64,000 nt of DNA, taken from positions 28,290,001 to 28,354,000 of the forward strand of contig OX467086.1 in assembly GCA_950106755.1 (NCBI GenBank). The letters are read 5' to 3'. The DNA is from Climacium dendroides. Its lineage: Eukaryota; Streptophyta; Bryopsida; Hypnales; Climaciaceae. Below, piece by piece: positions 9,868 to 37,414 of this stretch. The notes beneath the pieces were generated by a model. It saw only the letters and a list, made by a program, of their open reading frames with translations, searched no databases and was not told where the DNA came from. Numbering within the stretch: the stretch's first letter is position 1; each line of letters opens with the position of its first letter. The translations under genes were made by a program, and so were the position numbers.

Positions 9868-12142
9868 TTAGTCACTAGGTTGATCTATACCTTCATCATC
9901 TTCAATAGCATTGTTTGCAAGATATCGACTAGGGTTAGAAAACAAATATCGAAATTTTCTGGAGTTTTTCCACAAAGCAATAGCTTCCACCAAGAAAACA
10001 TCAACATCATTTGTTGGACCTTCAAGTGCAATACGCATTATAGACTCCAAACTCCTTGTTTGCAATCTATTACGAAATTTTGTTTTTATACAATTTTGGA
10101 CACTAAAAGCTCTTTCACATTGTGCTGTGCTAGCACATTGGATACGTGCAATATCAGCAATGGCAAGCAAATTAGAGTACTTCAGCTGTAAGGTGGGATT
10201 CCAACTCACCATTGTCCACAAGTCCCTAAATGGCTTGTCTTGCCACTCTGTAGTGGCTTGTAATTTGAATGCTAAAAACTCTCTCCTTACAGCTGAAGCA
10301 TCAATCATGGATGGAAATACTTTTGATCCAATAGCACGATCAACACCAAAATGAGACAAGATCGTCTCCAACTCTGTCACACCCCAAGATCTCAAACCCA
10401 CTTGCCTCACAGGCATGTTAGATGGACTTAAAATTTTGAAGCATCCAATCACACCATTATCTCCAAAACGAGTGTCCAATGCATCAATCACAGCTTCAGC
10501 AAAGAACTTTTGAAATGACCAAGCTTCTTCAAGATCTGCCCCTGTTCTATTCCATATCATTTCCATACTATGAAATCTTCCACCTCTAATTTCTGAAGAC
10601 AATCTCTTCAAGTAACCACCATGAGGACCAAAATCAAGAAGTATGTGAAACCCTGTTTCTTCATTAAAAGTGGAGGCATTCAGATCAGCAGTTTCATTGA
10701 CAAACAACATGCGCAATTGAGCAATTTCTGTAGTAATGATAGAACCAACAGCAGAGACATCCACAAATTTGTACTGAAACACTCGACTCAACATAGAAAG
10801 AGAGTGTAAAATATCAGTAAGGAAATAAAGACAATATATAAATTTAAAATTTAGTAATTTTGTGTACAAAGACAATGCAACATCGTCAACACATCCATCT
10901 TCATTGAGACTACGGAAATAAGTAAGCACTGATTCCAAAGAGTCACACAAAGTTGTAATTGCTTGCCAACGAGAAAGCCAACGTACCTTTTGATATCGTT
11001 TCATTGATTTCTCTGAGTCATTTAACTCCCTCTGAAGATTTTGTAATGCAGCCTTTCTCTTTGATGAAACCTTGAAAAACTTAGCTACACCATTCACCAC
11101 AGCATCAATCTTCTTGGACATATCTCTGCATTGTGGTTTCTTTGCCGCATCAAGAGCTGCAAGGTTAGTTCGATGAGCCACACAGTGAATAGAAGTAAGG
11201 AAGGGATTAACCTTCTCTTTCAATCGCGTTGCCACTCCATTCTTGCGTCCCAACATTGTAGCAGTACCACCAGATCCAAATGCCACACATTTATCTGTGT
11301 CTAATCCCCACTCTTTCAAACTTGTTAGTAAGGTCTCAAAAATTAAAGCAGCATCTTTTTTGCCATCAGTTATGTGCAATAAGCCAAGGAACACACAAAC
11401 AATATCACCATCTTCAACAAATGTAGCAAAAACAACCAAATGACCAGTAACTGAAATATCTGTACTTTCATCAATCATGAGTCCAAAATATTTTGCATTA
11501 CGAATTCTTTGCAAATTTTTTTTTTTGAATTACAGATGAGATGCAAAATACAAAATCTGAACATGACTTTTCATCATGATACATTGTTTCAGTGATACAA
11601 GCTTTAACAGAAACCAATAAGTGGCACAAATCAGGAAATCTTGCAAAAGGAATGAAAGATGTACCCATGTAATGGGCAACCCTAAATAATGCCAACAAAG
11701 CTTCATCAGAAGTTGCTGTAGCCTTTTTGATAACTTCAGCCATCTTCTTGCAACCATTGTGAAAAGCCCATGATAATCTCTTATGCTCCTCACTTCGTGC
11801 ATGATCTTGAAAAGCAGAAATCTTCACATTCACTGAACCAGCCTTTGCAAAAACTCCCTTTCCTCCCTTTTCACGACACACTTTGCAAAAAACTCGCCCA
11901 ATGTTAGAATTGAATTCAATCTAATCAAAATCAGTATAATATGAATCTTTCCAAGCTCTATTAGCATCCTCTACAGGATCAACAAGTTTGCTAGACCCTT
12001 CACTTCCCCTTTTTCCATTTGAAGTTGAACCACTTCCTTCAGCAACCTGCCTCTTGTCATTTTCAGAGAGCACTTCTTGAAATGATGATCTGAAGTATTC
12101 TTTTTGCAAGGTCCTTTGGCGCTTTTCCATTATCACCTTCAT
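9868..12142 (-). pseudogene. hAT transposase with zf-TTF finger, nearly complete
   Basis: A Lys/Arg-rich and Ser-rich leader (12142-11924) is followed by a TTF-type zinc finger (FCKVCREKGGKGVF, then a DHARSEEHKRL helix). Then comes the DUF4371/RNase-H-like core: KYFGLMIDESTDISV carries the first catalytic Asp, CVAFGSGGTATMLG the second Asp region and IHCVAHRTNLAALDAAKK the insertion domain. Near the C-terminus, YSNLLAIADIARIQCAS and STAQCERAFSVQNCIKTK form the hAT dimerisation motif. Total length is about 760 residues, close to full size. Two lesions are visible: an in-frame TAG at 11921-11923, where the context suggests Trp, and a frameshift in the A run at about 11514-11527. No intron is needed. 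The protein would act in the nucleus as a cut-and-paste transposase, but this copy cannot make it without repair or recoding. Confidence 0.85.
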
Positions 12143-13137: not shown

Positions 13138-14828
13138 TGTGAGTGTAATTTGCCCTTGAGGCAAACAACGCCCACAAAGTTGGCCGAGGGGGAGTGTATG
13201 AAGCTCCTACTCTAATTTTCCTCCAAGCAATGGACTCCTAAACAATTTTTGGTAAGTTTTTCTTAAATGATATTTAGTTGGGAGGAGCAGCCCTTCTCAC
13301 CCTACTTAAATGACCTTTCTAGCCACTTTCATCATATAATTGGACCATGAAGTTGGTTAGGACCATACAAGGGACAAAATTCACTTCAAATGTGCAATTT
13401 GATGCCCAAAATGGCCCAAATTGGACCCTCCTAACTAATTTCAGCACATCTTTACATGATCCAATATTTCATTTAGTATGCATTGCCCTACATTTTTCCT
13501 TCTTAATTGTTGTTCTCAATTCAAGGTTAAAGATTTTTTCTTCTTTTGTAATCCTCAAAATGGTTCTTGCATTTTAGATACTTGATCCCTCTAAACCCTA
13601 ATCTTAGTCCAATTAGGGCAACACTTTTGCAATTGCCTTCACACCCCTAAATTCAACTCCCATGCACTCTTCATCATTCTCAAACATCCAATTCAAGTAT
13701 CCTTCCATGCAAGTCTTTTTTCATGTTCATGTGCAATGAAAATTGCAAGTAATCAACAACAATGGTGAAGAAATCCTATCAAAACCTCAATTCGGACTCC
13801 CTCAGTGGGGGCAGCAGACACCCTGTTGGAAAACTAGCTGTCATTCCTTCATCGTAGCTCCAAATGGAACACAATTTGTCTCATTTAGAAGCTAACTCCA
13901 CTTTGCATCATTCCCCAAAATTTGAGCTCCACATTCACTGTCGTTTTGCCGCAGTAGCCCTCCAAAGTTGTTGCTCTTGATCCACCGCGGCTGCAGACCC
14001 TCCTCCACCAAAACGGCCACCATTTCTTCAATTCTACTCCAAATCAGGCGAACCATATCTTCCTAAAAAACTGACTTCAAGGCGCTCCTTCTCTCCAATT
14101 TTCAGCCCATTTAGATTCTCCACGCTTCCACAGTGGCTCGTCAAAGTTGCTTCTCCTAATTGCAACGGCAGCGGACCTTCCTCCTAAACACCTTTTCCAT
14201 CTGACCCTGAAATCTTCACTTTTTACCCATCTTTTACCTCTTGAGGTGAAAACCTACTCGACAAATTGGCTATATTCTCAATCCACCTCTTGTGCTCATT
14301 GTTTTCTCCCAAAAAAAACATGCACCCTCAACACACACACAAGAGACAAGAGAGAGAGAGGAGGAAGAAGAAGAAAAACTCCTAACCCTAATTCGACCTT
14401 TACCTACTTTCCAACTAATTCACACTCTTAATTACCTTCATCCATCCTTAATTTACTGAAAAATACCTTTTAATTATTATTTTTACCTAAAATAGTACTC
14501 CTATCACTATGTTAGTGCCTTCCTAGTAGTTATATGTTTGATGGCTTCTTTTGTGCATTTCATATTTCTTCTTTTTTGTTGGTTTTCAATTTATATTTAG
14601 CTCTATTTTCAACTTCTAATCTTGGTTTTCAATTCCCTTTTTGTATTTCTTATCTTTTAAATATTTTTAGTTTGTAATTTTGAAATAGATTCCTATCTAA
14701 TGTATTAAAAGCCTTCTAACTAATGGTTATAGTTTAATCTAATGAACTAACACTTTTGAACTTGAAATCTCACACATAATTTTTATATTTTCCATCATCT
14801 TAGAGGTGAACCATTACAGTGGTTCATA
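13138..14828. repeat. LTR, left copy (3' LTR of a minus-strand element)
   Basis: 1691 bp. It is collinear with 35724-37414 at a constant offset of 22586, with no indel that I can see. The only difference I noticed is at the terminal TCATA (TCACA in the other copy). Two small open frames inside (13347-13577, 14147-14431) occur identically in both LTRs and have no recognisable product. Confidence 0.93.
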
Positions 14829-16239: not shown

Positions 16240-18047
16240 TTAGATAAGTTGGGCAATAGAAATATTAGCCCGTAGGGCACAAAGGTCCGCCCATAGATCA
16301 TAGTCCTCCGCCGGATTGCACACCCGGGAAGAAGAATTTTTAGCCACCCCATCATGTTGGTCACCAATATTCACGTCCTCTACAAAACGATAGAGGTCAT
16401 CTTCCTCATCACTTAAAGGATCATCCAATGGAACATCTTCCATTGGCTCATGGTGATTTGGAAGTGGCTCATGGATGTTTTCTTGGGTTTGTTTCCTCAA
16501 AAACTCCCTTGTGGCTTGAATGTCCGGATCTTCTTCCGAACTACTACTTCCCTCAGAAATTGGCTCTAACGGGGGATTGTCTAAGCGTTGTCGGCGAGTC
16601 ATCACCGCCACCGCATGTCTTAGGGTTGGTTGATTAGTGGATGCCTCAGTTTTCTCCTCATTCTCATGAATGATGAGATGGGAATTTTGGTTCGAGGGTC
16701 CATCGAGCTTGGGAAGGGATGGAGGATCCAATGGTTGAGATCCTCTGGGACAAAACACTCCATCATTTCGAGCATCTTGTGAAATTGCCAAAGGTGGATA
16801 GACGGTCGGTCGAGGCATTGAAGGTATAGAGGAATGAACCGTTTGCAATGGATGTAGGAGTGGTGCCACCGGTTGTATTGGTGGAGGATATGGGGGTTGT
16901 GCTACCGGTTGCGATGCAATTGGTAGTGCTCCATAAGGAGGATACCATTGTACGGGTTGTGGGCTCACGTAGTATCCTTGAGCTCCTTGAAGTGCTCCAT
17001 GGTAAAACAAGTTCGAGGGAGGTTGTTTGGTAGTGCTTGTATCTACTCCAAACCCCTTTTTAGGCCTCCTACACTTATCGGTGGGGTGGTTGCCTCCGCA
17101 TTCACCACAAACTACACCGGTCTCTACCCAACAAATTCCCGAACCTAAAGGATGCACCCAGCCACAAGTAGGACATGGAATGCCTTTTGGTTGGGATTGA
17201 CCACCTCCCGGTTGGATAGGTGGATGAGGACGGGGTTGGGGAGGGATGTATGGCCCATGATTCCTTGGAAGTGGGCAAAATTGGTCACTATGACTATATT
17301 GGTTGCAATTTCGACACCAAATGTTGGTGGGGAAGTTGCCGGTCTCATTTAGAGAGGGTGGCGCATGGGCTGATTTTGCACCAATGGCCATGGCAATTTG
17401 ATCTCCAAGGCCTTTGATTGACCTCATGACGTCTTCTTTGAGATCATCATTGGCCTTTTGAAATTTGGCCTCTAATTCCACTAACCGGGATGTTTCCGAT
17501 TGCGGTTGCCATGGAAGTGGAGGAGCCGGTGGCCTAGAATCTAAAGGTGCCGGATGACTTGGAATGAGAGGGTATGGATGTCCATGAGAAGGTGCCACCG
17601 ATGTGGATGGCACATAATGGGTGGGGATAAACGCCGGCACCGGTGCTACGGTCCGGTTCCACATCCTAGCGTTTTCCTTCTCGATCCGCTCTACGTGTCG
17701 AGCCGCTACTTGGGCTTCATCTAGCGTTCGGGGACTTGTGTTCAAGATCTCCCGCATTATGGTTTGTTGGTTGAATCCTTGGATGAAATAAAACCTAATG
17801 GTTTCATCGGTGAGGTGGTTTCCTACAAACCGGGTGATTACCGTGTTAAAACGGCGAATGTACTCCGAGATTTCCTCGGTGGGACCTTGGCGCATTCCCG
17901 TGAGAGCTACCAAGGCACTTTGTTGCCCAGTCTCGGGCCGAAATTGCCGTAAGAAGGCCGTTTGCAATTGTGGCCATGTAGCAAAGGTATTCGGGGCATG
18001 CGATCGATACCACTCATATGCTTGCCCCTCGAGTGTGGTGGAAAACT
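16240..18047 (-). pseudogene. gag, C-terminal two thirds (capsid and nucleocapsid)
   Basis: The frame opens at the boundary with the nested insertion (18047) with TTLEGQAYEWYRSHAP, then FLRQFRPETGQQSALVALTG and IRFYFIQGFNQQTIMREIL, the standard Retrotrans_gag capsid motifs. A Pro-rich stretch follows, then two or three zinc-knuckle-like clusters (CRNCNQYSHSDQFCPL; GIPCPTCGWVHPLG; GVVCGECGGNHPTDKC), a second Pro/Gln-rich region and an acidic tail. The N-terminal third lies at 33397-33867, beyond the Mutator-like insertion. Gag would build the cytoplasmic particle that packages element RNA. The frame ends at a TAA (16240) and continues into protease. Confidence 0.85.
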
Positions 18048-18145
18048 CAGGGTTGCTAGCAGGCGAGCTTGTGAGCGTGAGCCCATGAGCCTATGAGTGG
18101 GAAAGATTTTTTATTAAAAAAATGTGGGGGACCTATGACCGTGGA
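18048..18145 (+). repeat. Left terminal inverted repeat of the Mutator-like element
   Basis: It begins CAGGGTTGCTAGCAGGCGAG, continues with GCTTGTGAGCGTGAGCCC and reaches GGGGGACCTATGACCGTG. The same words appear in inverted orientation at 33180-33388, with small gaps and repeats between them. Confidence 0.75.
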
Positions 18146-18619
18146 TGTAAGTGTATTTTTTTTGTGAAGATTTGAGCTCATTCTTCTGAAATTTTACTTA
18201 CTTACAAACTTAAATGAAATAAAAAATTGCAACAACCAATTGTGTTCAACCCAAAAAGGCCATACAAGACGTCAAATGTCTAATGAATGACAAAATAATC
18301 TCATATGTAGGACGTAACTGCAACTATTCATCGACATAATTAAAGGTGGAAAAGAGAGATTTTCTACAATACTTTGACTCCCAATAATTATTTTTGGTAT
18401 TGTTAAAGTAAATGATGTCACACGGTTCCAGAATCATTGATTTCTACGGGATCCTATCCGACGTTCAAGAGTTAATTTTGACAGAAAACATAAAATGCAA
18501 AATGTTGAAGGGGAATGAATCATACTAAAGATGTAGCCATAAAATACACAATCAAATCAAATCATACTGTAAATGAATACATAATAATTTGACTCATGAG
18601 ATATATCAATCTCATAAAT

Positions 18620-21600
18620 CTAGGTTGTAGTGGACTGAGTTGCAGATGCCAAGCTACTCTCAGACTCTGAAGTCTCTTTCCCCTCTGCTGCCGATTCATC
18701 TATAAATTGCAGAGCATTAAGAGCATAGGTATCTTTTCTACGTTTTGGTTCTAAGCTACCAAAGTTTGCAAATGCTGATGCTAATTGCTCAGCATAAACT
18801 GGGAGATCAAAAGGCTTCTCTGGACTTAGTACTAGTTTGCGTCTCTTCCTCAATGCATCTGTGGACATCAGTTTCTTACGCCTACAAAAAAAACATATAG
18901 AATATTAAAGTCACGAAATAGAAGAAGTAGGATGTCAAATAGCACTTGAAAAATATGAAAAACTTACTTACTAGGTTTAGTTCGGCGAGGAAATTTCCGA
19001 GGAACCACTATCATTGCGTCCGGATCTTGTGAAGATGCAGCCGGCAGTGGCAGTTGCGTTTCAGTTATTATCACATCTTCTTTAGTGTTCCTTTTCATAG
19101 GTTCAAGGACGCCGTGAAAAACAGTGTCGTCTTCCTCTAAAGCCACTATGTGTCGTCCCGTGCCGCGACATGCTGTAATTGATGCACCTACAAATTACAA
19201 AATGCAATTCATATCAATGAATCATTATATGAACACATATATGAAAATCCAGTTACTAAAATGAAAACTAACCAGTGGATGCTGTGCAGTCGAAAACCAA
19301 GTCGCCTTCTTCAGTTGTCCCCTCTATAAGGAATTGGAAGAACCTAGCATCCTTTTCGCGAGGCCCTCGCCATGGAATTTTGGTTAGTGGATTGACCAAC
19401 ATGCTCTCTTCAGTTGTGTAGTTAATTAATGTATCATCCTTGCGTAGGTCTACTTTCGCCTTCTGCATTGCTTGTGATCGCTTCAAAGAGAACCCTGAGT
19501 TATCTTTATCACCGAGGTCCTTTACCAAGAGAGTGATTCCAAACTTCAAAGTCTACAGTCACAAAAAAATTATGTATTAGAAAAGAATACAACCATCTGT
19601 CAATGCCAGTTTCCATTAAAATTATGAAAATATTTGAAAAACACTAACCGTTTCCGAGTCCTCCACAGCTGAAGTTAAATGCATACGATTGATACCCAAC
19701 CATTCCTTCTTCATTACCAGTGAAGGATAAGACTCGCACAATCTTGCAATAATGCCCTTTGAATCGGCACACCACGACTGAAATACTATCATGCAACCAT
19801 GGTCTTGTAAGTGCATATCTGTAAAGAAGAAGGCCGATTGAATGGCTTCATACTCTGGATTTGAATTCCATGAAGGTATTGCTTTCTCTAGAGAAGATAC
19901 ATCTGGGACAGGTAAATTCTCTTGGCAGTCAAAGAAGATGAGGTCCACTAAAGGTGCTTGGCTCACTTTACCTCCATACATACGAGACTTCCCTGGTGCC
20001 AACTGCAAAAACGAATTTATGCAAACAATCAATTATTTATACAACTTTTTTTCAAAGGACCACAAAAAAAAGGATTCATAGTTCTAGACAAAGCATCATG
20101 GTTACCTTCTTCAAAAAGGTCGTCACTTCAGTATAGCACTTGGGCACCTCGGACTCCATGTTATCCATCACGTCCACTATAGAGACGTTCAAGATCAATT
20201 CCTCTAAAGTGACGTCTGCATCATCACCAAGAACTATGGCTTGAGTACCTTGTGTTACGATGTCCTCTGTGAAATCTGGAAGTATCGCCTTCCTCTTCAA
20301 CCCACTTTGGGATCCACTTTGCATGTGCGAGTTCTGATCAACTGTTGAAGACGCCGGTACTTGTTTATTGCCTTCTTCTTTCTTCTTGCCTTTGCCTTTC
20401 CCCTTGCCCTCTTCTTTCTCCTTCTCCTTCTCTGCTAACTTCATAAGACGCTCCGCTTCTTTCTTCTCCTTGTTCTCACGAATCTCTTGCTCTTTGTTCT
20501 CTTTCTTCTTGTCAGCAACCATTCTCCTTGCAATTGCTTCTTCTTCTGTTGATCAGTGTAGTTGTTGAATTCAGGAACCTCCAAGTCAATGACGCCAAGA
20601 CCATCTAGTGATTTCCGAAGTTCTACTTCCGATGGATGAGTAAATGTCAACGGACAATCTAGATACCACACACCACCACTCAGATGAGCCGTTGTGAATG
20701 TCTTCAATTGGCTTGACGTGAACATGCACTCTTCAGAACTCCAGTCCAACCATGTGGTTAGAAATGGAGGAAGATCCTCCCTAGGTATGGCGTTCTTTCC
20801 TAAAAGCTCGTACTTGAAATACCTACATTAAGAACATTCAAAAAATTAGTAACAATCACATAGCCGAATTCCTTGTTACAAATAACACAAATTCACTGAA
20901 CAAATAACTACGTATGCTCATCCTTCGAAGAAAGTAAGGAAACATAAAATTCATATTTACATAAACATACCGGAAAAGAACTGTACGAACAACATCATTT
21001 GATCCATCAAAATTTGAGAAGGTCTCCGACTTCTTAAAAGGGTTTGATCCCTTCAAAGCCGGGCCAAAACCTTGATCCCAAATCTTCCTTCTCCATCCTT
21101 CTATATACTCTGGAAGATACTCCGGTTGAAGTGGGGATGCCATATTGATTTTTAGGCCATCTTTATTGACTACATTGTCAAAGTACTCTACCGCACTATC
21201 CTCAATCTGCATTATATTCTTATCAGTACAACTCCATTATCGTTTCGTATACATGAAAAAACAAAACTGCAAAATGTAGTACTTCATGATTTTGTCATTA
21301 TATACATGAAAAATCATTTACATAAATACAAACACTTACCCCTGCCCACCAAACACATTTATTGAGGAAAGGCCCCAATTTATCTTCAGAAACTGGCTTT
21401 GGAGGGAAACGTCTGGCATCCCGTGAAGGCATGGACGAGTTCCACCACTTCAACAACTTTGTCTTCTATGCTGCAGAGGTATTGCAAGTGGCTATCATTT
21501 GTAGCTTTTCCAATGTCATTTCAAGAACTTCATTTGTGGTCCAATGCTTTTCAACCTTCACAAGGAAATAAAAAAATTTCAGCATTAAATAAATCACAAT

Positions 21601-23610
21601 AATAAAAAATAAGACAACCGTTTTTTACATCATAAATCTTCATCACCTCTTCCATAAATCCTGGACCGTGAGTAGGATTTGCCACCGCAAGCAATTTTCC
21701 CATTTTCACGTACAATTTTGCCGCCTTCTCCTTAGCTCCAACCCTCATGGCATTAGCCACCCCTTGATCACTTTTATCTTCAGATGCTGTCACTTCATTG
21801 TACTTCCGTACTGCGGCATCCACTCCTTGAGCTATCTCTTGCTAAAAAATAACATCAACACAATTTCAATTATACCAAATTTGCACATTCTTCAGCCCTT
21901 CCTATATTGTAATGACCTAAAATGAAAGATATATAAAATAGTTAGAACATTCTCACTCTTACCCGAAAAACAAAAGCCGTGAAGACCTCCATTGACATTG
22001 AGTACCATGTTTTTCTCACTGATTGCGTACCACAACGTTTCCTCTCAGAAGGTCTCAACATTTCATTGAACTTCTCCATGGGAAGAAGCCCATACTTTTG
22101 AACACGATAAAGAGTATGAACTAGATTGGTCTTCACATGGGAATCCTCTGTTGACCTACAATTCACATTAGGCTATAAAATCATTTCATACATATGAATA
22201 AATTGAATAACAAAATAATAAAAGTCAAAGATTAAGTTCAATCAAACAACATCATATGATACACGCTTACTTATTGATGTCATGCATAATCTGCATGATA
22301 AGCTCTATTCTCCCTTTCGTGTCCAAAATGATGCTGTCTACTGAAATGTGCCAAGCTCGATCCGCCACATGCAGCCTCGAGATATGATTCATCCACGCCA
22401 AGCGACGGTGATTTCCATCACAGATAAAAAACTTCGAGTTCTTCAAGTACCTCAACTCTGGTAATGAATCTAAGTACTCATTGAAGATGTCATTCTCTGA
22501 TTTCCACAAAGGACCCCAAGCATCCATTTCATCTCTCGAGAATTCAGAAGACTCCCCCGCTTCATTAGTTGTGGAAACATAAAAAACTGCGGCTCCATCC
22601 CGATATCCATGAACAAACTCTTGTTCAAGCTTTACAAGATCACAAGAGAGGGTGGGCCTAACCATTAGCATGGGTACCAATCTGCACAAAGGTATGTGCA
22701 TTCAAGAGTGTTTCTGAGGCCTCATCCTCAAACTCTCGATGGTGGCCACAGAGTCTACCTTCTGCAACCGTCGGAGTTCATCTTCCAACAACTCCTTCTC
22801 CTCCTCCTCATCAACATCATTCACCTCAACATCTCCTTCTTCCTCAGTGCCAATTTCTGGTTGACCTCTTTCACTGGTAGGTGGAGTTGAATGAACTTCC
22901 TCTGCTTGTGACAGATTAATTGGTGACTCCTCCATTTGCAAGATCATATACATTTTTTAGAGCAATTACGAAATACACGGAAGTCCTCCAGAAGTTCCAA
23001 GTTCAACTTGCAAAACAAATCTTTACTATGATGGTAAGAAAATTCTCAATACAAAGGATTGTACAAGTAATACATAATCGCCCGTATCATAATAACACCA
23101 ATGACTAAGTAATACAAATGCTGCAACACTGCAACTGCCTCTATTCCTTTCAAACTCAATCAATTTCTACACTAGCATCTGAATCAGAACTCAAGTGGAT
23201 GAGGACAATATCGTGCCTGCCCAATCCGGAGCTGCCAGCAGTATCTCTAATATCCTCAATTGGTGGACTAGAAATGGAGATTGATGTTTGACAATTAGAG
23301 CTACTATACTCAGTCTTAGAACTCTCAGAAGAGAACACTGGTTGTTTTCGTTTTCGTTTTTTGGAATCACTGAACCTACTGCAACAAGGTTCATCTAATT
23401 GATCAGCTGCTCGGTCACAAGCATCAAGAATGTCTCCAAGGCTTACCAAGTCAGTGTCTTCATGAGGCAATGACTGGTTAGTAATGTTGATGTTTCTATC
23501 TTTTGGAGTCCTAGGTTCCAAAGTTCCTGCAACATCTGCAATATGGATTGCCATATTAGAAGGTATTGGTAAAAGGGCATGGTCGTTCAGACTCTCAGGT
23601 GTATTCATCT
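18620..23610 (-). pseudogene. ParB-like/beta-class DNA methyltransferase-like accessory gene
   Basis: Exons inferred from GT-AG sites: 23610-23160, 22950-22271, 22155-21963, 21841-21629, 21555-21340, 21206-20971, 20822-20106, 20002-19649, 19552-19273, 19187-18972 and 18881-18620. In order the protein shows a Ser-rich region with a basic nuclear-localisation-like KKRKRKQ; an acidic stretch; a ParB/sulfiredoxin-like domain (MVRPTLSCDLVKLEQEFV, then FFICDGNHRRLAWMNHI); a helical middle; a Lys/Glu-rich linker; a motif-IV-like strand VDLIFFDCQE with QDHGCMIVFQSW after it; and last a motif-I-like block (RFFQFLIEGTTEEGD, LVFDCTASTG, RHIVALEEDDTVFHGV). Motif IV before motif I is the beta-class (N6_N4_Mtase) order. 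DPPY is replaced by DCQE and FxGxG by CTASTG, so methyl transfer is doubtful. Lesions: TGA at 22702-22704, TAG at 21466-21468, and a frameshift near 20555-20570. It is read towards the left end of the Mutator-like element, away from the transposase. Family calls are mine from motifs; exon edges, especially 5', are approximate. Confidence 0.65.
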
Positions 23611-24057
23611 GCAAAACCATTTTAATAATAAGGTAGGCCAATGTTAGTTACAATCGAATAAATTTTTTAAAAATAATACTAAGAGTACATCAATAAAAAG
23701 TAAGAAGAAAAAATCAATATTAAAAACAGAAACTGACATCTCAAACTTACTTGACTTCCATTTCAGCATTCCCATAGTTGGAATACCAAATATTTATAAA
23801 TTCTGTAATTTGCACGAAAATAGGGAAAGCCCTCTTATGACATATGCCCACCCCTTCCTTATAATCATACAGGGAGGAAACTCAAGGAATCGAAACAATT
23901 AAAAAAATAGAACTCATGCACTTGAACATAAAACAAAATCACGTGGACATCACTTGAGGTCATTCCCGGTCAATGCATCCAAACATGGCTGCTGAAACGT
24001 ACTGTAAACCCACTACTGACGTGCATATTGAGCGTCCCTCACCATGGAGACTAGGTT

Positions 24058-24161
24058 AGCAAGACGAGAAATAGGAGTACCGTGAGGTACCCCAAGGAAC
24101 CCTGTCGGGTCCGATAGGGTTCCTTGGTGTAGTTCACGCTACCCCTGGTTTTGGTCTTGCT
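24058..24161. repeat. Foldback hairpin A
   Basis: The arms AGTACCGTGAGGTACCCCAA and TTGGTGTAGTTCACGCTACC, with AGGAACCCT opposite AGGGTTCCT, form a long imperfect hairpin around GTCGGGTCCGATA. Outer flanks AGCAAGAC and GTCTTGCT also pair. The loop half is the reverse complement of hairpin B. Confidence 0.8.
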
Positions 24162-24651
24162 TTTTCATGGCGTGTGCGTTTTGGTCCACGGCGTTTGCAT
24201 TGACCATGAATTTCTCAATGAACTTAAAGTCACGTCAACTACACTAATGATGGTATTTAGTGTTATGTTACTAATAGTTTTACTTGAATTTCTACCACAC
24301 CCACTCAAAATTTCAATTGGTTTGCATTTAGTGTTTTGTTCACCATTTCTTAATTCATATTTTTAGGTTTTTATTTTTTTCATTGTAATTTGATGAAATA
24401 ATATGTAACACTAAATGTAATTTTGTAAAATAATTTTGTCCAATAGTTGACTTCTTTAAATCAATTAGTATACGTAACACTATTTATCATCATTACTGTA
24501 TTGCTACCGAAGCGTACTGTACCTAACTGCAATACCCAATCGAACCATACAGACAAGATTGGATGAATGGAAAAAGAAAACCACGATGGCGGAGTAGCTC
24601 TGTAGCTCTGTTGAATCTGTTGAAGGACCTTGTTGAATCCTTACAACGACA

Positions 24652-24778
24652 CCAAAATGACCAATAAGACACGAATTGGGGGTAGCGTGAGCTACCCCAG
24701 GGAACCCTATCGGACCCGACAGGGTTCCTTGGGGTAGCTCACGCTACCCCCAATTCGTGTCTTGCTGGTCACTTTGGC
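24652..24778. repeat. Foldback hairpin B, about 126 bp
   Basis: A nearly perfect palindrome. The outer arms CCAAAATGACC and GGTCACTTTGG pair. Next inward AAGACACGAATTGGGGGTAG pairs with CTACCCCCAATTCGTGTCTT, then CGTGAGCTACCCCAGGGAAC pairs with GTTCCTTGGGGTAGCTCACG, around a short centre. It is a strong hairpin in DNA or RNA and is related to hairpin A in opposite orientation. Confidence 0.88.
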
Positions 24779-25315
24779 CTTCCCAGTCCCAGCATGTTCC
24801 GGAACTTCCGAACCTCCTCATCGCGAACCTCCTCATGCACGTACCTCTTCCACGATCGCAGTGATGGGAGAATACTTCAGAGTCTATAACAGAACCTCTA
24901 TTTCACATTGCTGATCTAGTTGTGGAAGACGCCCCAACTGCTGAACTAGCGGTTCATGAAATTCAACTACATTCTAATGATCAATTTGTTATGACCGATC
25001 GAAGGCATTCGTCTACCAAACAGAGACTGGGCGATCTTCAATTCAAGGTCAATCAAAAATGGAAAAGCAGCTATGCCTGGCATAGATGCTCACTGATCGT
25101 CACTGCTCAGACAAACTGTATACCCAAATGAACAGGAAAACTGCTGTAAATATTAGAATCTTCAGAGTAGAAAAAAGTTCAAATCTTTCGCAATGAGAGC
25201 CAGACATCTCGATTGGAGGACGATGCTATCTTGGTTGTTGTGCAGGTCATTTAAAGTCGGTGCCGGCTCCACCTCTTCCGACTGCAGCCGCTTCTGTCTC
25301 CTAGTGTTCCGCATT

Positions 25316-25751
25316 CTTGGAGGATGGAGCGTACCGCCGAAGTTCGAAGCCACCTGCATGACGACAGAAGTTCAGCTAGAATACAAGAGCAAGTCAATGA
25401 AGCTTAAACGAACAGGAAATATTAACTGGAAACTACAGTAAGAGGAGAGAGGACACTTACCGAAGGGGACTTCAGGGATACTACGGGAAACTCGTGGACC
25501 GTCTAGAGACTCGAACAAGAGAACGTCAAGTACTCGGAGGATGGAGCGTACCGCCGAAGTTCGAAGCCACCTGCATGACGACAGAAGTTTAGCTAGAATA
25601 CAAGAGCAAGTCAATGAAGCTTAAACGAACGGGAAATATTAACTGGAAACTACAGTAAGAAGAGAGAGGACACTTACCAAAGGGGACTTCAGGGATACTA
25701 CGGGAAACTCGTGGACCGTCCAGAGACTCAAACAAGAGAACGTCAAGTACT
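25316..25751. repeat. 217-bp tandem duplication carrying minus-strand splice donors
   Basis: Two head-to-tail copies start at about 25316 and 25535 (GGAGGATGGAGCGTACCGCC in each) and end with GAACGTCAAGTACT. Each copy contains, on the minus strand, a good 5' splice site (CTTCGGTAAGTGTCC in one, CTTTGGTAAGTGTCC in the other). This suggests a duplicated leader exon for the leftward gene. Confidence 0.7.
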
Positions 25752-28049
25752 AAGCAAGCAGTTGCGAACGTCAAGCACGAAGCAAGCAGTTGAGGATGTC
25801 TGAGAGACCCTGCAATTCTATACTGCAGTCATTCGAAGCTGGAGGAAGGAAGTTCTTACGGAAGATTCCCAGGAAGAACCTCGGGAGACGCTTTTCAAAT
25901 TCAAAACATTCCTTCCCTCGATGTCAGTATGGCCACATGCGGTCCGTCATTCCAGTATGGCAGGAGATTCCAAACTCATAATGATGCACATGGAGTACAG
26001 GTAGTTCAGTCGGAAAAGGATTTTCGGTGGCCTTCAGTTTTAGCGAATTCAGATCCTGAGATGGCACGTCATGCATGCGACGTTGTCAGGTGCTGTAGTT
26101 TTTGACGTTTGTCCAGATTTGCCGAATTAGCTCTGTATTTTTCATCATGTAATTATCAGCTAATGGCACGCCTTGCTCGCGATGGATTCGAAAACGAAGC
26201 CTTAAAAGGCTCTGCTTGCGCAAGCAGTGGAGGGCATTTTGGTGTGGGAACGTTAGTGCCCGGACAAAGCTGGGGAGCGCCGTGCGCAAAGCTAAAAGCT
26301 CTTCCGGAATTCAGAATATGCTGATTTAAAGTAAATGCTCATTTGCATGCGCAAGCTCGGTTGTTCACGGAAGAATCTCAATCAAATTTGGTTTGTGGTT
26401 ATGAATTCGATGCATGCATTTGGATGAGCTCAGCTGTTTACGGAAGAATCCCAGTCAAAATCTACCAACCGCAAAAAGGCTGCACCGTAAAACCTGCTTG
26501 ATTTCCATGAAACTAGCTTGCTCAGTAGAAGAGTATTGAGAGAGAAGGTTAAATATCTCGATAAACAGGCTGACAGTAATAATTTAACCCCTGAACGGCC
26601 CTCGGGCTCTTCCTCTACAGCACCGTATCCAATGAATACGGTGACCCACGAATTTCAAGAAGTTCGTTCTCGATGGTGAGTTGGGATTCCAGCCGTTCCG
26701 ATTGCTTTTGTGGTGTCGTGAGGTCACGTAGAAATTTTCACGAGACTATAGACTGAAGCGATGCATAGAATTTTGGGACAATTCATCGAACTTCACACTG
26801 CGCTGTCTCATGCATGAACTTCAGGATTTATGTGAAATTCTCTTCTCGGGCGTTGGGCAATCGTTCCAGTGCATGGGCTTACAATGCTGCAAGGACCGTC
26901 AACAAAAAATTTAGAGTCGAAATTGCAAGTGGATTCAAATTCCACAAAGGTCCACAGAATATGAAACGACTGGGATTAGATGTCAATTCAATTTTTTTTT
27001 CTACGCCAATTCACTGAAAATTGTTTCGAGCTGTTTAGCTTTCCCAAAAATGCAATGACCTCTTTAAGGGTCGGTTTAAGAGCCACCTACCTTATATCAT
27101 GAGAATACTGGAGTGCACTGTGCCATTGCCACAACTCAAAACATATTTAGAAATCAATCAATTTTCTAATGTAGGTCCAAACTTCATGAAACCAAAAACT
27201 TTAAGTGCATTTTGTTGAATACAAAATGGAAGAGTACTCATTATGACTATTGTCGAATATGGAATAGAAAGATTAATTCTTAATTTCACAAAATGTTCAG
27301 AAATGCTATGCTAAATTAGTTCTCTTCTGACTATTATCTTCAATTTCTACTCTATACGAATAATTACATTTCCGCTACAGTGAATAGAAAAATTAAGTTT
27401 TACGATACCACTATACTCTCTTCACATTCTACACTAGATAAATATTTTCATTTCCTGTCCAAGGATGCAACTATGTGGGTTATGTGGATTTGTGTAAGGT
27501 TAATGGCTTGGGCTTATAAAATGGTGTGTGCCACCATATGCCGAAGCCAATGAATGATAAAGGAACTTGCCATGATGAAGGAACCTAATTAAAGAGGCAG
27601 GCTGATTGGCTTATTTCATTGTTTATTGTACTATATCCATAACATTGGGCATGATTTATAGTTACCAGAAACTATGAAAGTTAAATAGGATTAAAAATAA
27701 AGTTTAGCCAAGAACTCACAATCAGAAGTTAGTTTCATATTCATCACAATTGTAATGAATGTAGACATTTGGGCCATCCATGAGGGAATTTGAAGGAATA
27801 TATATGCAATCCCCATGAGGCAATCCGAGGGAATATATAAACCATCTTCTTTCTTTAGGAAGTGCTTTGAAAGCAGTTCTAATTACTGAAGCATAGACAG
27901 TACAAATGGATGTGTTCATTTATGTACATAAAATTGCAATGCAATCCCTTTTTATTGTATGTGGAAAATAGGTTATTCTATTATATTTTTGTACTGTATA
28001 CCTCAGTGGTAGTCATGTTATCAACTTTCAAATAATTGGTGCAGAAAGA

Positions 28050-28205
28050 ATTCTATTGTAGACAATCTGAGCCTACTAGAGTATTAGGCTTAGTTGCCAA
28101 TTATTCTATTTTTTGAAATTGTTGCGCAAATAATTCTATTGTAGACAATCTGAGCCTACTAGAGTACTAGGCTTAGTTGCCAATTATTCTATTTTTTAAA
28201 TTGGT
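28050..28205. repeat. 83-bp tandem duplication
   Basis: TTCTATTGTAGACAATCTGA, GCCTACTAGAGTA and TAGGCTTAGTTGCCAATTAT recur 83 bp apart (from 28051 and 28134) with few changes. It lies about 300 bp upstream of the transposase start. Confidence 0.8.
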
Positions 28206-28501
28206 GCGCAAGTACTTCTTCTATACGTAGTGTAAGTGTGTCAGGTATACCCGCGAACATCAATAAATGTTTAACTGTGGGGCCCTATTATGAGAATGTT
28301 GTAGAAGTTGCAAGACAGTTGTTAATGTCCGGTAAATTTGAAGTTTAACTACTTCCTAATATCCTATTCAGTTTTCACTAGTTGTATAGTAAAATCAATA
28401 TGCATGAAAATGCACTATAAGAGAGTGAGTATTCATACTCAAAACACCAAAGACAAATTTGTAGTTGATCTTCACTATTGTTTTCAAGTGAAGATTGTAT
28501 C

Positions 28502-31500
28502 ATGGCTTGCATTCGTGTAGATGGCCATGACATTCCCCTAGTGTTTCCAGTTGATGAGGGTGGACACGCTAGAGTTCTGAGCCATCTCTTGCACGTCCGT
28601 TTTAGATTTGTGGAGTCGTCCATCTATGTAGAAGAAGAGAGAATGTCTAAATCAGGAGAAGTACAGCAGTCAATTCCAATATTGAAGTCTATAGAGGAAG
28701 GAAGTCAGTGTTGGCATCTTCCTATTGGAAACTATAGAGCTTATGGGCTACCATTGTCTATGGTAAATGCATCAACCGAAATTCGAAGTAGGCAGTCAGA
28801 TAACTCTTCTGTAGATATGCCATATGTTGCTCATATGGTTTCATGCAGTCCTAGTCGTCAAGCTTTGCCAGTCCTTTTTGATAACTCAGGTCTTCGCCCA
28901 GTTAAAATTGAGAAGTTAGATACCATCATAGAGTTGTCTAGTGAATCCGAAGGAGAGTCCCCTGACTTAACAGTCCGGAGAACTGCATGCAAAATTGAAG
29001 TTGTATGGCAGGGAAATGCTTCAGTGAAGCCAGTGTCAAGCAACCCATCAGATAGTGGAGGTCAAACTAAACTGTCCCGTCCTCCATTGCCACCAAATAT
29101 AGAGAACCGAGTCAGTATAATGGAGTCTTTGAGGGGATTAGGTAGAATGCATCGTTCACGAAATGAGTTGTCAACGACGGACTTGAACAGCATGAAGCAC
29201 CATTGCGTACAGTTTCTTCCACCCATGTTCAATGGAAATGTCATATTTGAGTTGCCTCCATGTCGTTCATCTTCTTCTTCATCAGCGGCGAAGAACTTGG
29301 AAGGAATGGACAAGAGATATGATGGACACCCATGGTGCAAGTTGGTGACTACAAACATCCACAACTCCGACAAGTTGAAGTTCCGTAAGTCATATTGCGC
29401 TGGTCATCTTGTTTGTCTAAATGTAGAGTGTGACTATCTGAAGAGGGCTTCAAAGCACAACGAAACTGAGTGGACTGGTGCGACAACCTTCGCTTTCACA
29501 GTAGGGGATACTCCTCCTAAAGACTGTACTCTGGTTTGCAAACTCTGTAGAAAAACTCCTACATGTCTAAGCACCTGTGATGCTAGGATGTACTACTGCT
29601 ATAGTAAGAATCCAAAAATGACTAGGGCCACTATTCATTTTGGACATCATGCTCACCCTACTGCCAAAGGCATGTACAGAGATTCTGCAGAGAAGATTAG
29701 TGAATTGATTGCAGAGCAAGTGGCCAAAACACCAACGGCCACGAACTCCGCCATTGCTCTATCAGCAAGCAAAGACTTCCTTACAAACTATCTATTCCAC
29801 AACGGAAATGGAGAGAAGATGTTGCAAGGGGAGGAATTGGAAGAAGTGATGGATCGTTTCCAGTATTTGAGCAGTCCAAACATTCGGAATGTGATTTCTT
29901 CATTTCGCTCAAACAATAGAGGAGGAGTCATAGACAATATTATGACCATGAAGAGAGACTCAAAGTTTGAGTTCATTCATGATAGCGTTTTTCCTGGTCA
30001 AGGAAAGGAGAAGGTATACCTTTTCAAGATGTTGACCAAAGAACCTGGTAGTGGAGTAGACTTGGTGAAGCGCATGCAGCTAGGGGGGAATCTGCAGAAT
30101 GCATGGATGATGTTTGACCACGTGAAGCGTGTGAAGGACTGGACTACAATGGCTTGCCACGTGTACGATTCCGAGTACAAAAAGGTAATGACCATTGCAA
30201 CATGCGATATGCAGTCAGAAGATACGGAAATTCAAGTGCAATTCTAGAGGTCATTGAATGTTGTCATGTCAAGACATGGACTAGATCACCCAAACTTCAA
30301 AGGGTTCATGGCAGATAGTGCTATGGCCAATTGGAATGCAGTTCGAATTGTCTACGAAAGTGGATGTGCCAATGAGAAAATGGAGAATAGGGAGAGGACA
30401 TGCTTACTACATTGGAGTACTTCTCTCCAAAAACATACTCAGAAACATATTAAGGAAGTATTTCAACAACAGCACAATACACTCTGCAAACAATATAAAG
30501 ATGCTAAAACTATGGAGGAGGCAGAGACACGTTACCTAGCAATTCGTTCATGGTGGTTATCATCAGGTGCTGCCACGGAAGATGCACTTCATCACTTGGA
30601 GCATTGGTTGGCATTTTGGCATTTCAGATACCGATAGTGGGGGGGGTTCATGCAAATGGTAAGAGAATATTCACTTTTCTATATGTAAATTTGTTACCGT
30701 ACAAGCAAGTTTTAGTCATATTCGACATAAAAAGTGAATTGTATATTGATGATGTATTATTTTGTTTCAGCATAAATAGTATGTGTTTTCTAATTAATTA
30801 TTTAGGAATGCCTTTTATGCCATTTGAACTATACATGCACATAATTAATGGTCTTCAATATTTTCTATAGGTGGAATGAATGAAAGTAATTATGAGAAGT
30901 AATTTTGGTTATTGGATGCATGTCTAGGATTTGAATCTGGAAGAGATGGCAGATATACCTTCGTGCAATCTATTAGAGACAGTTCATAATAAATGGCTTC
31001 AAATGTCTGGCAACCGAGGAAACAATTTGTTTGATGCCACATGTGATGATAGCATCTGTGCGTGGATGCAAATGACAAACTACCGTGCATATTTGAGAGG
31101 CCATGCCTTTGGATCCGGTCCGTCAAAGGGGGAGTTGAAGTTGAGAGCTGCAAGACAAAGTGGAGACCCTAAGAAAATGGCAGAAGCATTGAATTCCCTA
31201 CCTGGGTTTGAAGGAATTGGAAGTCGTATACCACATTTGGAAGGAAAAGAGATATTTGGGAACACGAAGAGGAAATTGGACGTTCCAATTGGCGATGCAG
31301 GAGACTCACATCGACCAGACAAAGTAAATTTCTCTCAACCTCGTGTCCGAACAAGGTCCACTATTCCTCCTATAAACTCTTCGGAAGGCAAAGGAAAAGA
31401 ACCAGAGTCAAATAGGTATAACCATGTCACAATTGCATTTGAAAGTGACTGTGACACATCAAAGTGGCACATTGCAAGGATCAGTCACAAATCTAATGCT

Positions 31501-32316
31501 AAGTGTCAAGCTCAGCAGCGAGGGTCAAATATAAAGTGCACTGCTCGAATTGCAAGAAGACAAAAGGGAACAGTAGCTCCAACTTATCGTGGTAGAAAAG
31601 AAGATTACGGAACAAAACGAGAGGTATTTGCAGACTTTTGGTTCTGTGCAGATGATATTGAACGATGTGTGAAGGGTACGAAGCGTAAGTGGGTAATAGA
31701 TTGGCCGGATGTGCCAGAAATTTGGCCTATTTTGACAGGAACAAACCTCAGTCGAGACGAGACTTTATTGTTGCAACATGCTGGTTTCCGGTTGCAAGAA
31801 CAACCTACATTGTCACCACGTTGTTTGTTCAGCATGTCAAAGATTTTTGAAAGTGTTGTGTATGATGAAGTCCCGCCAACAAATGCAGATGTGTATCCTA
31901 CAGTGAGGAACAATCGAACCATACGGTGAATAGCAAATGCACCAACTGCAGAACAACACAATAAGTGGGAGAGTGCAGGCAATGTTAGAGGTCAAATTTT
32001 GGGAGTGACCTTGCTTCCTTTCCCGGGACTAGGAGCAATCATATCTCTGGAGACTGGGATAGATCAGAACAAAAATGTGTATCGAGTAACCGTGGGTATG
32101 TTCCCTTCCTGCACATGCCTAGACTTTGTGAACATGTCTACTTCAGCTATTGGAGGACATCAACAGTATGTGAATTGCAAGCACCTATATTACTTGTATC
32201 GATATTTCTGCAAGATGGACATCCATGACGACAAATTCATTCATGCACCGAGTTATAGTTTCAATGAGTTGAAACTTCTTTTACTTCGAGCAGGAATAAT
32301 CACTATGCCACAGTAG
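28502..32316 (+). pseudogene. Mutator-like transposase with SWIM finger
   Basis: Two exons: 28502-30658 (donor GTAAGA) and 30928-32316 (acceptor TGTCTAG). I start at the ATG at 28502. Residues about 280-400 form a Cys/His-rich region (SYCAGHLVCLNVECDYLKRA; CKLCRKTPTC; ARMYYCYS, then HFGHHAHP), like GCM/FLYWCH-type DNA-binding fingers of Mutator transposases. The DDE core follows: MFDHVKRVKDWTTMACHVYD and ATCDMQSEDTE around the first Asp, GFMADSAMANWNAVRIVYE around the second, and PSCNLLETVHNKWLQMSG around the Glu. A basic linker leads to the C-terminal SWIM finger, FPSCTCLDFVNM with YVNCKHLYYLYRYFC (C-x-C...C-x-H). In-frame stops at 30245-30247 (TAG), 30635-30637 (TAG) and 31927-31929 (TGA) break the frame, each with conserved sequence on both sides. 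It would cut and join the ends of the surrounding 15.3-kb element in the nucleus. Confidence 0.82.
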
Positions 32317-32854
32317 GCACGTATTAAACTTCATATGTATTTGAATGGTATTTTTTTAATATATTCAAAATACCATTGAATTGATGGAAAGTAAAGAAAA
32401 ATGGAAGCTTGAAAACTACAATTGAAAGAGGTAATGTAGTTATGAAAATATGAATATGAATGACATTTTCTTTTCCTTCTTCTTTCTTTTTCTCTTCTTG
32501 AATTGTATTTCACATGTCTTTCCCCTTTTTTTACCTTGGCTTTCCATTAGTATTTCCATTCTTCTTGATATTGACTTTCATTTGTTTCGTCATGCAATTG
32601 TATGTTTTTTTATTTTTTTCCTATCCTAAGTCCATACTATTTTTTTTCCTCCACTGTTACTTGTATTTCATTTTATTTTTCTATTTTGTATAATTTAGTA
32701 CCCTCCTTTTCACATTTTACTTCCCATTTATTTCTTTTGTTTTCCTTTTGTCTTTCATGTCATTTATCTTTTATGGTTGCTTACCCATTTTCTAGGAAGA
32801 CGTCTTCTATGCTTTATATTTATTTTTTTCAATTGAGTAATCACTCCATTAAGT

Positions 32855-32925
32855 TGGAGTATATTAGCAAGAGGTCCATGAGACTGAAATGTGATGGCCC
32901 GGGTTCGAATCCCGTGAGGCCCCAA
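32855..32925 (+). other. tRNA-like promoter remnant (SINE-like)
   Basis: An A-box-like TTAGCAAGAGG is followed 34 bases later by a strong B box (CGGGTTCGAATCCCG). The flanks do not fold into an acceptor stem that I can recognise. It is most likely the head of a SINE or a decayed tRNA. It lies inside the Mutator-like element, beyond the transposase. Confidence 0.35.
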
Positions 32926-33179
32926 ATTATGCCATTGGGCGCAATCCCCATATTGAGCTAAGTCTTAAGAGTTCTTCTAGAGCAGCTATAGTGGAGGCTA
33001 GGTAATGTCCATCAAATATTTTTTATAGTGTTCTTTGCTAAACTAATTATATCTTTTCCTATAAATGATTGGTGATTGCATACATAGTTGCATTATAGAG
33101 TTGGAAGTACATGCCTAACTGTATACTAATGTTGAAGAAAATTTTCACATTTCAAATGGTAATTATTGAAATAATTTTT

Positions 33180-33388
33180 TTTTAAAATTCACGGTCATAG
33201 GTGGCTTGGTCATAGGTCCCAAATTTTACTAAAAATAGTAAGTACAAGTCTTTTTTAGAACAAAAATTTTTAACTTTTTTTTTGGAGGGGGGGGGGGGTG
33301 GTTTATAATTTTTGGGGCTCCACGCTCACAAGGCTTACGCTCGCAACTCACAAGCTCGCCGCTCAAGGCTCGCACGCTAGCGTCGTTG
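33180..33388 (-). repeat. Right terminal inverted repeat of the Mutator-like element
   Basis: Read inward from the right end it begins CAACGACGCTAGCGTGCGAG and repeats GCGAGC/GTGAGCG words. It has a run of about 12 Cs (Gs on the plus strand near 33287) and then GGGACCTATGACC and CACCTATGACCGTG. It is longer than the left terminus because the GCGAGC and CTATGACC words are duplicated. Confidence 0.7.
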
Positions 33389-33396
33389 GTGGAAAA

Positions 33397-33867
33397 CTAT
33401 ACCAATCTATAAGTCTCCTCAGGGATCACATTAGTCACAAGGGTTTCGATGTACCGCTCAATGTGTCCTGAGGGATCTTCATGGGCTAATCCCGAAAATT
33501 TTGGGAAATGGGTAGGCATGGCCCGAGGTGCCATACCTTGAGGCATTACTATGGGTAATCCCCGAGGTGCCATCATGGCATCCACCGGATCTAAGTTTGC
33601 CATGATTGGAGGTACTTCCGCCTCCTCTATCCTATCCAACTCGTCTTCTACTTCAACTCCAAATGTAGAGTTGTTGTCTCCAAGTCCTTCTACTATCACT
33701 TGCGGTTCTTCAACCACCGGTGGTTCCTCTACTCTAATTTCTTCTTCTATCGGTCAGGGTTCTACGATTGGTGGAGGTGTTGGTGGTCTTCCTCTACCTC
33801 TAGTAGTTCTTTCTTCTCCACTAGTGGAAGATTGGCGGCCATGGGATTTTGATCGGGTAGTCACCAT
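33397..33867 (-). pseudogene. gag, N-terminal third, interrupted by the Mutator-like element
   Basis: The frame starts with MVTTRSKSHGRQSS, continues with an Arg/Pro/Glu-rich N-terminus, and has a TGA at 33754-33756 (sequence on both sides stays in frame and acidic). After MPTHFPKFSGLAHEDPSGHI, the classic start of the plant Retrotrans_gag domain, it reaches ETYRLV, a TAG (33397-33399) and the insertion point. On the other side of the insertion, TTLEGQAYEWYR at 18.04 kb is the expected next motif. Confidence 0.8.
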
Positions 33868-35723: not shown

Positions 35724-37414
35724 TGTGAGTGTAATTTGCCCTTGAGGCAAACAACGCCCACAAAGTTGGCCGAGGGGGAGTGTATGAAGCTCCTACTCTA
35801 ATTTTCCTCCAAGCAATGGACTCCTAAACAATTTTTGGTAAGTTTTTCTTAAATGATATTTAGTTGGGAGGAGCAGCCCTTCTCACCCTACTTAAATGAC
35901 CTTTCTAGCCACTTTCATCATATAATTGGACCATGAAGTTGGTTAGGACCATACAAGGGACAAAATTCACTTCAAATGTGCAATTTGATGCCCAAAATGG
36001 CCCAAATTGGACCCTCCTAACTAATTTCAGCACATCTTTACATGATCCAATATTTCATTTAGTATGCATTGCCCTACATTTTTCCTTCTTAATTGTTGTT
36101 CTCAATTCAAGGTTAAAGATTTTTTCTTCTTTTGTAATCCTCAAAATGGTTCTTGCATTTTAGATACTTGATCCCTCTAAACCCTAATCTTAGTCCAATT
36201 AGGGCAACACTTTTGCAATTGCCTTCACACCCCTAAATTCAACTCCCATGCACTCTTCATCATTCTCAAACATCCAATTCAAGTATCCTTCCATGCAAGT
36301 CTTTTTTCATGTTCATGTGCAATGAAAATTGCAAGTAATCAACAACAATGGTGAAGAAATCCTATCAAAACCTCAATTCGGACTCCCTCAGTGGGGGCAG
36401 CAGACACCCTGTTGGAAAACTAGCTGTCATTCCTTCATCGTAGCTCCAAATGGAACACAATTTGTCTCATTTAGAAGCTAACTCCACTTTGCATCATTCC
36501 CCAAAATTTGAGCTCCACATTCACTGTCGTTTTGCCGCAGTAGCCCTCCAAAGTTGTTGCTCTTGATCCACCGCGGCTGCAGACCCTCCTCCACCAAAAC
36601 GGCCACCATTTCTTCAATTCTACTCCAAATCAGGCGAACCATATCTTCCTAAAAAACTGACTTCAAGGCGCTCCTTCTCTCCAATTTTCAGCCCATTTAG
36701 ATTCTCCACGCTTCCACAGTGGCTCGTCAAAGTTGCTTCTCCTAATTGCAACGGCAGCGGACCTTCCTCCTAAACACCTTTTCCATCTGACCCTGAAATC
36801 TTCACTTTTTACCCATCTTTTACCTCTTGAGGTGAAAACCTACTCGACAAATTGGCTATATTCTCAATCCACCTCTTGTGCTCATTGTTTTCTCCCAAAA
36901 AAAACATGCACCCTCAACACACACACAAGAGACAAGAGAGAGAGAGGAGGAAGAAGAAGAAAAACTCCTAACCCTAATTCGACCTTTACCTACTTTCCAA
37001 CTAATTCACACTCTTAATTACCTTCATCCATCCTTAATTTACTGAAAAATACCTTTTAATTATTATTTTTACCTAAAATAGTACTCCTATCACTATGTTA
37101 GTGCCTTCCTAGTAGTTATATGTTTGATGGCTTCTTTTGTGCATTTCATATTTCTTCTTTTTTGTTGGTTTTCAATTTATATTTAGCTCTATTTTCAACT
37201 TCTAATCTTGGTTTTCAATTCCCTTTTTGTATTTCTTATCTTTTAAATATTTTTAGTTTGTAATTTTGAAATAGATTCCTATCTAATGTATTAAAAGCCT
37301 TCTAACTAATGGTTATAGTTTAATCTAATGAACTAACACTTTTGAACTTGAAATCTCACACATAATTTTTATATTTTCCATCATCTTAGAGGTGAACCAT
37401 TACAGTGGTTCACA
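35724..37414. repeat. LTR, right copy (5' LTR of a minus-strand element)
   Basis: 1691 bp, starting TGTGAGTG and ending GGTTCACA, followed by the 5-bp duplication ACCGG. Apparently identical to 13138-14828 apart from the terminal base noted there. Confidence 0.93.

What the first reader, a model, noticed from the sequence alone, without database searches (positions are those of the whole stretch)
18048..33388. Mutator-like element carrying a ParB-methyltransferase-like second gene
Seen: a 15.3-kb insertion splits a gag gene, is flanked by a 10-12 bp repeat (TGGTGGAAAACT), has inverted ends (CAGGGTTGCTAGC and CAACGACGCTAGC, plus shared GGGACCTATGACCGTG) and holds two genes pointing outward. 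One is a DDE-SWIM transposase. The other joins a ParB/sulfiredoxin-like domain to a beta-class methyltransferase fold. Known: maize MuDR also has a second gene, mudrB, but of unrelated sequence and arranged convergently. Inferred: this is a distinct Mutator lineage whose accessory protein reads or modifies DNA, perhaps to protect donor copies, mark excised ends or counter host silencing. I know of no description of this pairing in plants.
Basis: partly seen in the sequence, partly recalled or inferred. Interest (0 to 1): 0.92.

Follow-up and report, generated by a model that had tools for sequence, protein, structure and literature searches.

The report
Jumping gene with methyltransferase-like companion gene
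A large, recently moved but worn-out eukaryotic jumping gene carries, next to its own mover enzyme, a second gene that fuses a ParB-like fold to a DNA-methyltransferase-like domain; similar companions are known from algal jumping genes, so this extends a known but unexplained theme to another kind of element.

Summary
A 15.3-kb insertion (18048-33386) with imperfect inverted ends and a 10-12 bp target duplication splits the gag gene of an LTR retrotransposon whose 1,689-bp LTRs are identical, so the insertion is young. It holds two divergent genes, both broken in this copy. The rightward gene is a transposase whose predicted catalytic fold best matches ISCth4, with a GCM-like region and a SWIM-type CxC...CxH motif: Mutator-like. 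The leftward gene (10 exons, about 1,124 aa) joins a ParB-CTPase/sulfiredoxin-like fold (structure predicted from relatives of its first exon, 189 found) to a beta-class N6/N4 DNA-methyltransferase domain (PHROGs E 1e-7; profile alignment probability 97%). Its catalytic motif reads DCQE, without the usual proline and aromatic residues, so methylation is doubtful. The pairing is not without precedent: a 2025 paper describes a 1,104-aa opposite-strand ParB-methyltransferase gene in a brown-algal Sola1 element and cites green and red algal cases. New here: the Mutator-like carrier, the size of the ParB family, the possibly dead methyltransferase. Function (self-targeted anti-silencing or marking) is inferred. 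Host identity and fixed pairing in other copies could not be tested.

The parts
18036..18047 (.). left target-site duplication TGGTGGAAAACT (10-12 bp)
33387..33398 (.). right target-site duplication
18048..18160 (+). left terminal inverted repeat, imperfect
   Evidence: gapped alignment to the right end; 0 of 1000 shuffles as good
33188..33386 (-). right terminal inverted repeat, imperfect, with GCGAGC-type short repeats
18620..22953 (-). leftward accessory gene, 10 exons, about 1,124 aa if read through; two premature stops and one frameshift
22271..22953 (-). exon 1: ParB-CTPase/sulfiredoxin-like domain with CDGNHRR box
   Evidence: 189 relatives; structure of relative P0060
18968..20002 (-). 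three exons (20002-19649, 19552-19273, 19187-18968) holding the beta-class N6/N4 methyltransferase-like domain; degenerate motif IV DCQE near 19930
23156..23647 (-). open frame upstream of the leftward gene; possible extra gene or exon
   Evidence: frame only; no Pfam match
23650..28500 (.). stretch between the genes with 2 x 217 bp and about 2 x 83 bp tandem repeats and two long palindromes
28502..32316 (+). transposase gene, exons 28502-30658 and 30928-32316; three premature stops
13138..14826 (-). LTR (3') of the retrotransposon into which the element jumped
   Evidence: 1,689 bp, 0 mismatches to the other LTR
35724..37412 (-). LTR (5') of the same retrotransposon

Best explanation
This is one decayed copy of a large Mutator-like (MULE) DNA transposon with two divergent genes. 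One makes a DDE transposase of IS256/Mutator-like fold with a GCM-like region and a SWIM-type motif. The other makes a transposon accessory protein that joins a ParB-CTPase fold to a beta-class DNA-methyltransferase domain, the same architecture as accessory proteins reported from algal transposons. Shown: anatomy, domains, young insertion, broken genes. Inferred: the copy was moved in trans by an intact relative, because it is broken yet sits in a very young retrotransposon; it could also have broken after insertion. Inferred: the accessory protein binds its own element's DNA, the ParB fold acting as a nucleotide-gated loader or clamp, and keeps the element free of host silencing, as VANC proteins do for VANDAL elements; the methyltransferase domain serves mainly as a DNA-reading or DNA-holding module in this lineage, since its catalytic motif is degenerate.
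Against: No test of function. The two genes were seen together in one copy only; two contig lengths (583271 and 185737) occur in both lists of relatives, but their ParB exons sit in one clade while their transposases are 49% and 75% identical to the window's, so at least one is probably not the same element. Pfam: no family for the read-through transposase at E up to 10; of 30 relatives none matched a MULE model at E up to 1, one matched zf-Tnp_2 at 0.76; no SWIM match in L127's second exon and only E 0.3 in the window's last piece. ParB exon: no Pfam or PHROGs ParB match, and no Foldseek row at E up to 0.001, best 0.013. Methyltransferase against PDB sequences: best E 0.8. The degenerate motif IV is known from a single decayed copy. 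The ParB fold was modelled on a relative, not on the window's own exon.
Confidence: 0.45

Rival explanations
1. The accessory protein is an active self-modification enzyme: it binds its own element through the ParB domain and writes 6mA or 4mC on it, marking the donor, the excised ends or the active state.
For: This is the reading offered for the algal proteins in PMC12477816 (passage). The domain is a beta-class relative of phage adenine methyltransferases.
Against: Motif IV reads DCQE where the phage sequences shown have D-[IP]-P-Y, and motif I reads DCTASTG where they have mostly DPxAGSG or DPFMGSG. At least five base changes within nine bases separate DCQE from any DPPY codons (my count on the codons printed), more than the scattered lesions of this copy suggest.
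Confidence: 0.25
2. The leftward gene is a captured or separately inserted gene, a passenger of this copy, not a working part of the transposon family.
For: MULEs often carry extra frames and host gene fragments (PMC6446971, passages). Only one full copy was seen; genes of the contig-mates do not match cleanly.
Against: No repeat pair above shuffled background brackets the gene. The first exon has 189 relatives, some clusters with many members (48, 21, 17), which fits a repeated, mobile family. The same architecture and opposite orientation are reported in an algal transposon.
Confidence: 0.2
3. The accessory protein helps transposition itself (end pairing, integration or segregation of donor copies) through ParB-like clamping, with no role in silencing.
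For: mudrB of maize is described as apparently required for integration (PMC6446971, passage). ParB folds act as DNA clamps or as NTP-binding modules (PMC12704722, passages).
Against: No helix-turn-helix or dimer domain of a classical ParB was shown here; I know of no role of a methyltransferase-like domain in end pairing (recalled, not searched).
Confidence: 0.1

Closest known systems
ParB-methyltransferase accessory proteins of algal DNA transposons (Sola1-1_Ec32 of Ectocarpus; green and red algal cases cited there)
VANDAL elements and VANC anti-silencing proteins (Arabidopsis)
   Same: A MULE with an accessory gene; VANC binds tandemly repeated motifs in non-coding parts of its own element and removes DNA methylation there (PMC5735166, passages). 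The present element also has tandem repeats between its genes.
   Different: No sequence or domain relation tested; the passages seen do not describe VANC as ParB or methyltransferase.
MuDR of maize (mudrA/mudrB)
   Same: Mutator-type transposase plus a second gene.
   Different: mudrB is a protein of unknown function (PMC6446971, passage); that its sequence is unrelated and its arrangement convergent is recalled.
Prokaryotic and phage ParB-N6_N4 methyltransferase fusions
   Same: The same two folds fused, enriched in prophage regions (PMC12704722, passages).
   Different: The ParB relative P0060 had no tblastn match in 50,697 phage records at E up to 10; only the methyltransferase part shows phage relatives.
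TET/JBP genes in fungal DNA transposons; DNMTs in retrotransposons
   Same: Transposons that carry DNA-modification enzymes (PMC12730594, PMC5890265: search listings with the start of the abstract).
   Different: Other enzyme families.

Membership tests
Mutator-like element (MULE) | DDE transposase of Mutator/IS256 type | tested here: met
Mutator-like element (MULE) | SWIM zinc finger CxCx(n)CxH after the catalytic domain | tested here: inconclusive
   Pattern present at residues 1114-1138 of the read-through protein, in P0001 and in L127, but Pfam SWIM only E 0.3, below its cut-off, in the window and no match in L127's second exon.
Mutator-like element (MULE) | 8-11 bp target-site duplication | tested here: met
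   10 bp if both ends start CA; 12 bases are shared in all. The 8-11 bp rule is from PMC6446971 (passage).
Mutator-like element (MULE) | terminal inverted repeats | tested here: met
   Imperfect, gapped; 0 of 1000 shuffles as good.
Mutator-like element (MULE) | place within the MULE transposase tree | not tested
   No named MULE sequences were fetched.
ParB-methyltransferase transposon accessory proteins | ParB-CTPase fold | tested here: met
   (model of relative P0060 from 41 rows; the window's exon is its homologue). HMM libraries did not see it.
ParB-methyltransferase transposon accessory proteins | beta-class N4C/N6A methyltransferase domain in the same protein | tested here: met
   Pfam N6_N4_Mtase E 0.015, below its cut-off.
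ParB-methyltransferase transposon accessory proteins | catalytic motif IV ([DNS]PP[YFW] type; the motif is recalled) | tested here: not met
   DCQE in this copy; relatives' methyltransferase exons not seen.
ParB-methyltransferase transposon accessory proteins | sequence kinship with the Ectocarpus, green or red algal proteins | not testable with these tools
VANC anti-silencing proteins | binds and demethylates its own element | not testable with these tools
   Needs an experiment.

The most novel reading that the evidence does not exclude
A lineage of Mutator-like transposons has made a ParB-CTPase fold plus a catalytically dead methyltransferase into a nucleotide-gated, self-targeting DNA clamp that protects the element from host silencing: a pseudo-methyltransferase that reads or shields DNA rather than marks it.
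Probability: 0.2. Interest if true: 0.78.

Novelty: new variant of a known kind. Interest (0 to 1): 0.52.

Why it matters
How transposons escape silencing is open outside a few systems such as VANC. Here a widespread protein family with two folds best known from bacteria and phages rides on a Mutator-like element, as a protein of the same make-up rides on a Sola1 element of a brown alga. The same odd pair next to two unrelated transposase types suggests a reusable accessory module whose task can be tested by binding and methylation assays on intact copies.

Tried and rejected
Separate insertion of the leftward gene: compared 18111-18640 with 22951-28480; best inverted score 27 against a maximum of 34 in 30 shuffles, direct 24 against 36. 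A Helitron-like or other repeat-free insertion is not excluded.

Tree comparison of the two genes: only two contig lengths occur in both lists, so not testable; what there is does not match (the tree used 46 of 120 listed ParB relatives plus the window). The first protein search with the whole leftward protein found nothing at E up to 0.001, probably because database proteins are single exons. Own-genome copy number could not be asked: the genome search did not complete.

Full report
What is there. Its body runs from 18048 to 33386 and is flanked by TGGTGGAAAACT at 18036-18047 and 33387-33398. Twelve bases are shared; if both ends begin with CA, the duplication is 10 bp. The ends align as an imperfect, gapped inverted repeat; none of 1000 dinucleotide-block shuffles reached the observed score (52.5 against at most 47.5). 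Joined flanks read as one gag frame across the junction, with a stop at the junction and another near the start of the upstream piece; the larger piece matches Retrotrans_gag.

Age. The gag belongs to an LTR retrotransposon on the minus strand, LTRs 13138-14826 and 35724-37412, 1,689 bp without one difference. The transposon must be younger than that insertion. Yet both of its genes are broken: leftward two stops and a frameshift, rightward three stops. The simplest reading is that an already worn copy was moved by the transposase of an intact relative; decay after insertion is the alternative, but six lesions in about 7 kb of coding sequence against no difference between the two 1.7-kb LTRs makes it less likely. 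This is inference, and assembly errors are not excluded. Relatives of the transposase without these breaks exist: P0002 and P0003 for the first exon, and L127, open in both exons but cut at its 5' end by the contig.

Methyltransferase domain. The 244 residues of exons 20002-19649, 19552-19273 and 19187-18968 match PHROGs methyltransferase families at 1e-7, 7.1e-6 and 2.5e-5, Pfam N6_N4_Mtase at 0.015 (below its cut-off), and phage genes by tblastn: best E 9e-3 over 89% of the query, 15 of 15 listed rows named methyltransferase or methylase (many near-copies), 290 rows not listed. PDB sequences gave nothing significant; the four methyltransferases among eight rows lie at E 0.8 to 1.1 beside unrelated proteins. 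Against a profile of 49 phage methyltransferases hhalign gives probability 97.0, E 1e-10, over 194 columns, while 50 shuffled versions reach at most 3.2 and a piece of the transposase 1.35. The profile was seeded from hits of this same query, so PHROGs is the independent test. The motif order (IV before I) is that of the beta class (recalled). Motif IV aligns as FFDCQENLP against IADIPYNLG, motif I as DCTASTG against DPxAGSG. The proline and aromatic residues of motif IV are missing. This argues against catalysis, at least in this copy; no relative's methyltransferase exon could be fetched.

Do the two genes belong together? In this copy, yes: one pair of ends, one duplication, no other bracket found. 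Beyond this copy I could not show it. Two contig lengths, 583271 and 185737, appear in both lists, which suggests but does not prove the same contigs. Their ParB exons (P0130, P0138) fall in one eight-row clade of a tree of 46 relatives plus the window, but their transposases are 49% and 75% identical to the window's, so co-inheritance is not shown. P0138 also lacks the CxGNH box.

What is known. [quoted passage not shown] The two works cited there (Iyer and others 2011; Petroll and others 2025) are not held. A 2019 survey of MULEs (PMC6446971; passages and parts of its table) does not contain the word methyltransferase, and I saw no ParB among the extra motifs in the parts shown. In the rows listed by my library searches (capped lists) I saw no land-plant or Mutator case. 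PMC12704722 (passages) reports ParB folds fused to N6_N4 methyltransferases, enriched in prophage regions, and that some ParB-fold fusions bind ATP.

How it may work. VANC proteins show that a MULE accessory protein can bind repeated motifs in its own non-coding DNA and remove DNA methylation (PMC5735166, passages). The present element has 2 x 217 bp and about 2 x 83 bp tandem repeats between the genes, which would suit such a role but prove nothing. I favour a self-targeting DNA-binding protein that counters silencing, with the ParB fold as a nucleotide-gated loader and the methyltransferase domain as a DNA-contacting module; an active 6mA/4mC writer is the main rival.

Verdict.

Noticed in passing
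13138-37412: Young LTR retrotransposon (minus strand) with 1,689-bp identical LTRs and a stretch next to the right LTR that looks to me like a primer-binding site.
   Followed up: partly
24058-24161 and 24652-24777: Two long, nearly perfect palindromes of related sequence, probably diverged fold-back repeats inside the element.
   Followed up: partly
23156-23647: 163-codon open frame upstream of the leftward gene with a KKRKRK stretch and an acidic end resembling a SUMO-interacting motif (name recalled); a similar acidic stretch lies in the transposase.
   Followed up: no
28502-28790 (transposase N-terminus): Predicted ubiquitin-like fold at residues 1-95 of transposase relative P0003.
   Followed up: no
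9868-11529: hAT-type transposase fragment (Dimer_Tnp_hAT, E 1.7e-5).
   Followed up: no
50506-52314: Frame with DUF7869 (E 7.4e-40), possibly another mobile element.
   Followed up: no
54230-55444 and perhaps beyond: Long array of 11-bp TGCAACT-type repeats (the list of copies was cut).
   Followed up: no
32890-32925: GGTTCGAATCCC, a tRNA B-box-like stretch near the right end (recalled motif), perhaps a SINE relic; no tRNA or Rfam match.
   Followed up: partly
L127: A eukaryote-like two-exon transposase of this family sits in a contig binned with an uncultured cyanobacterium MAG, likely contamination.
   Followed up: partly
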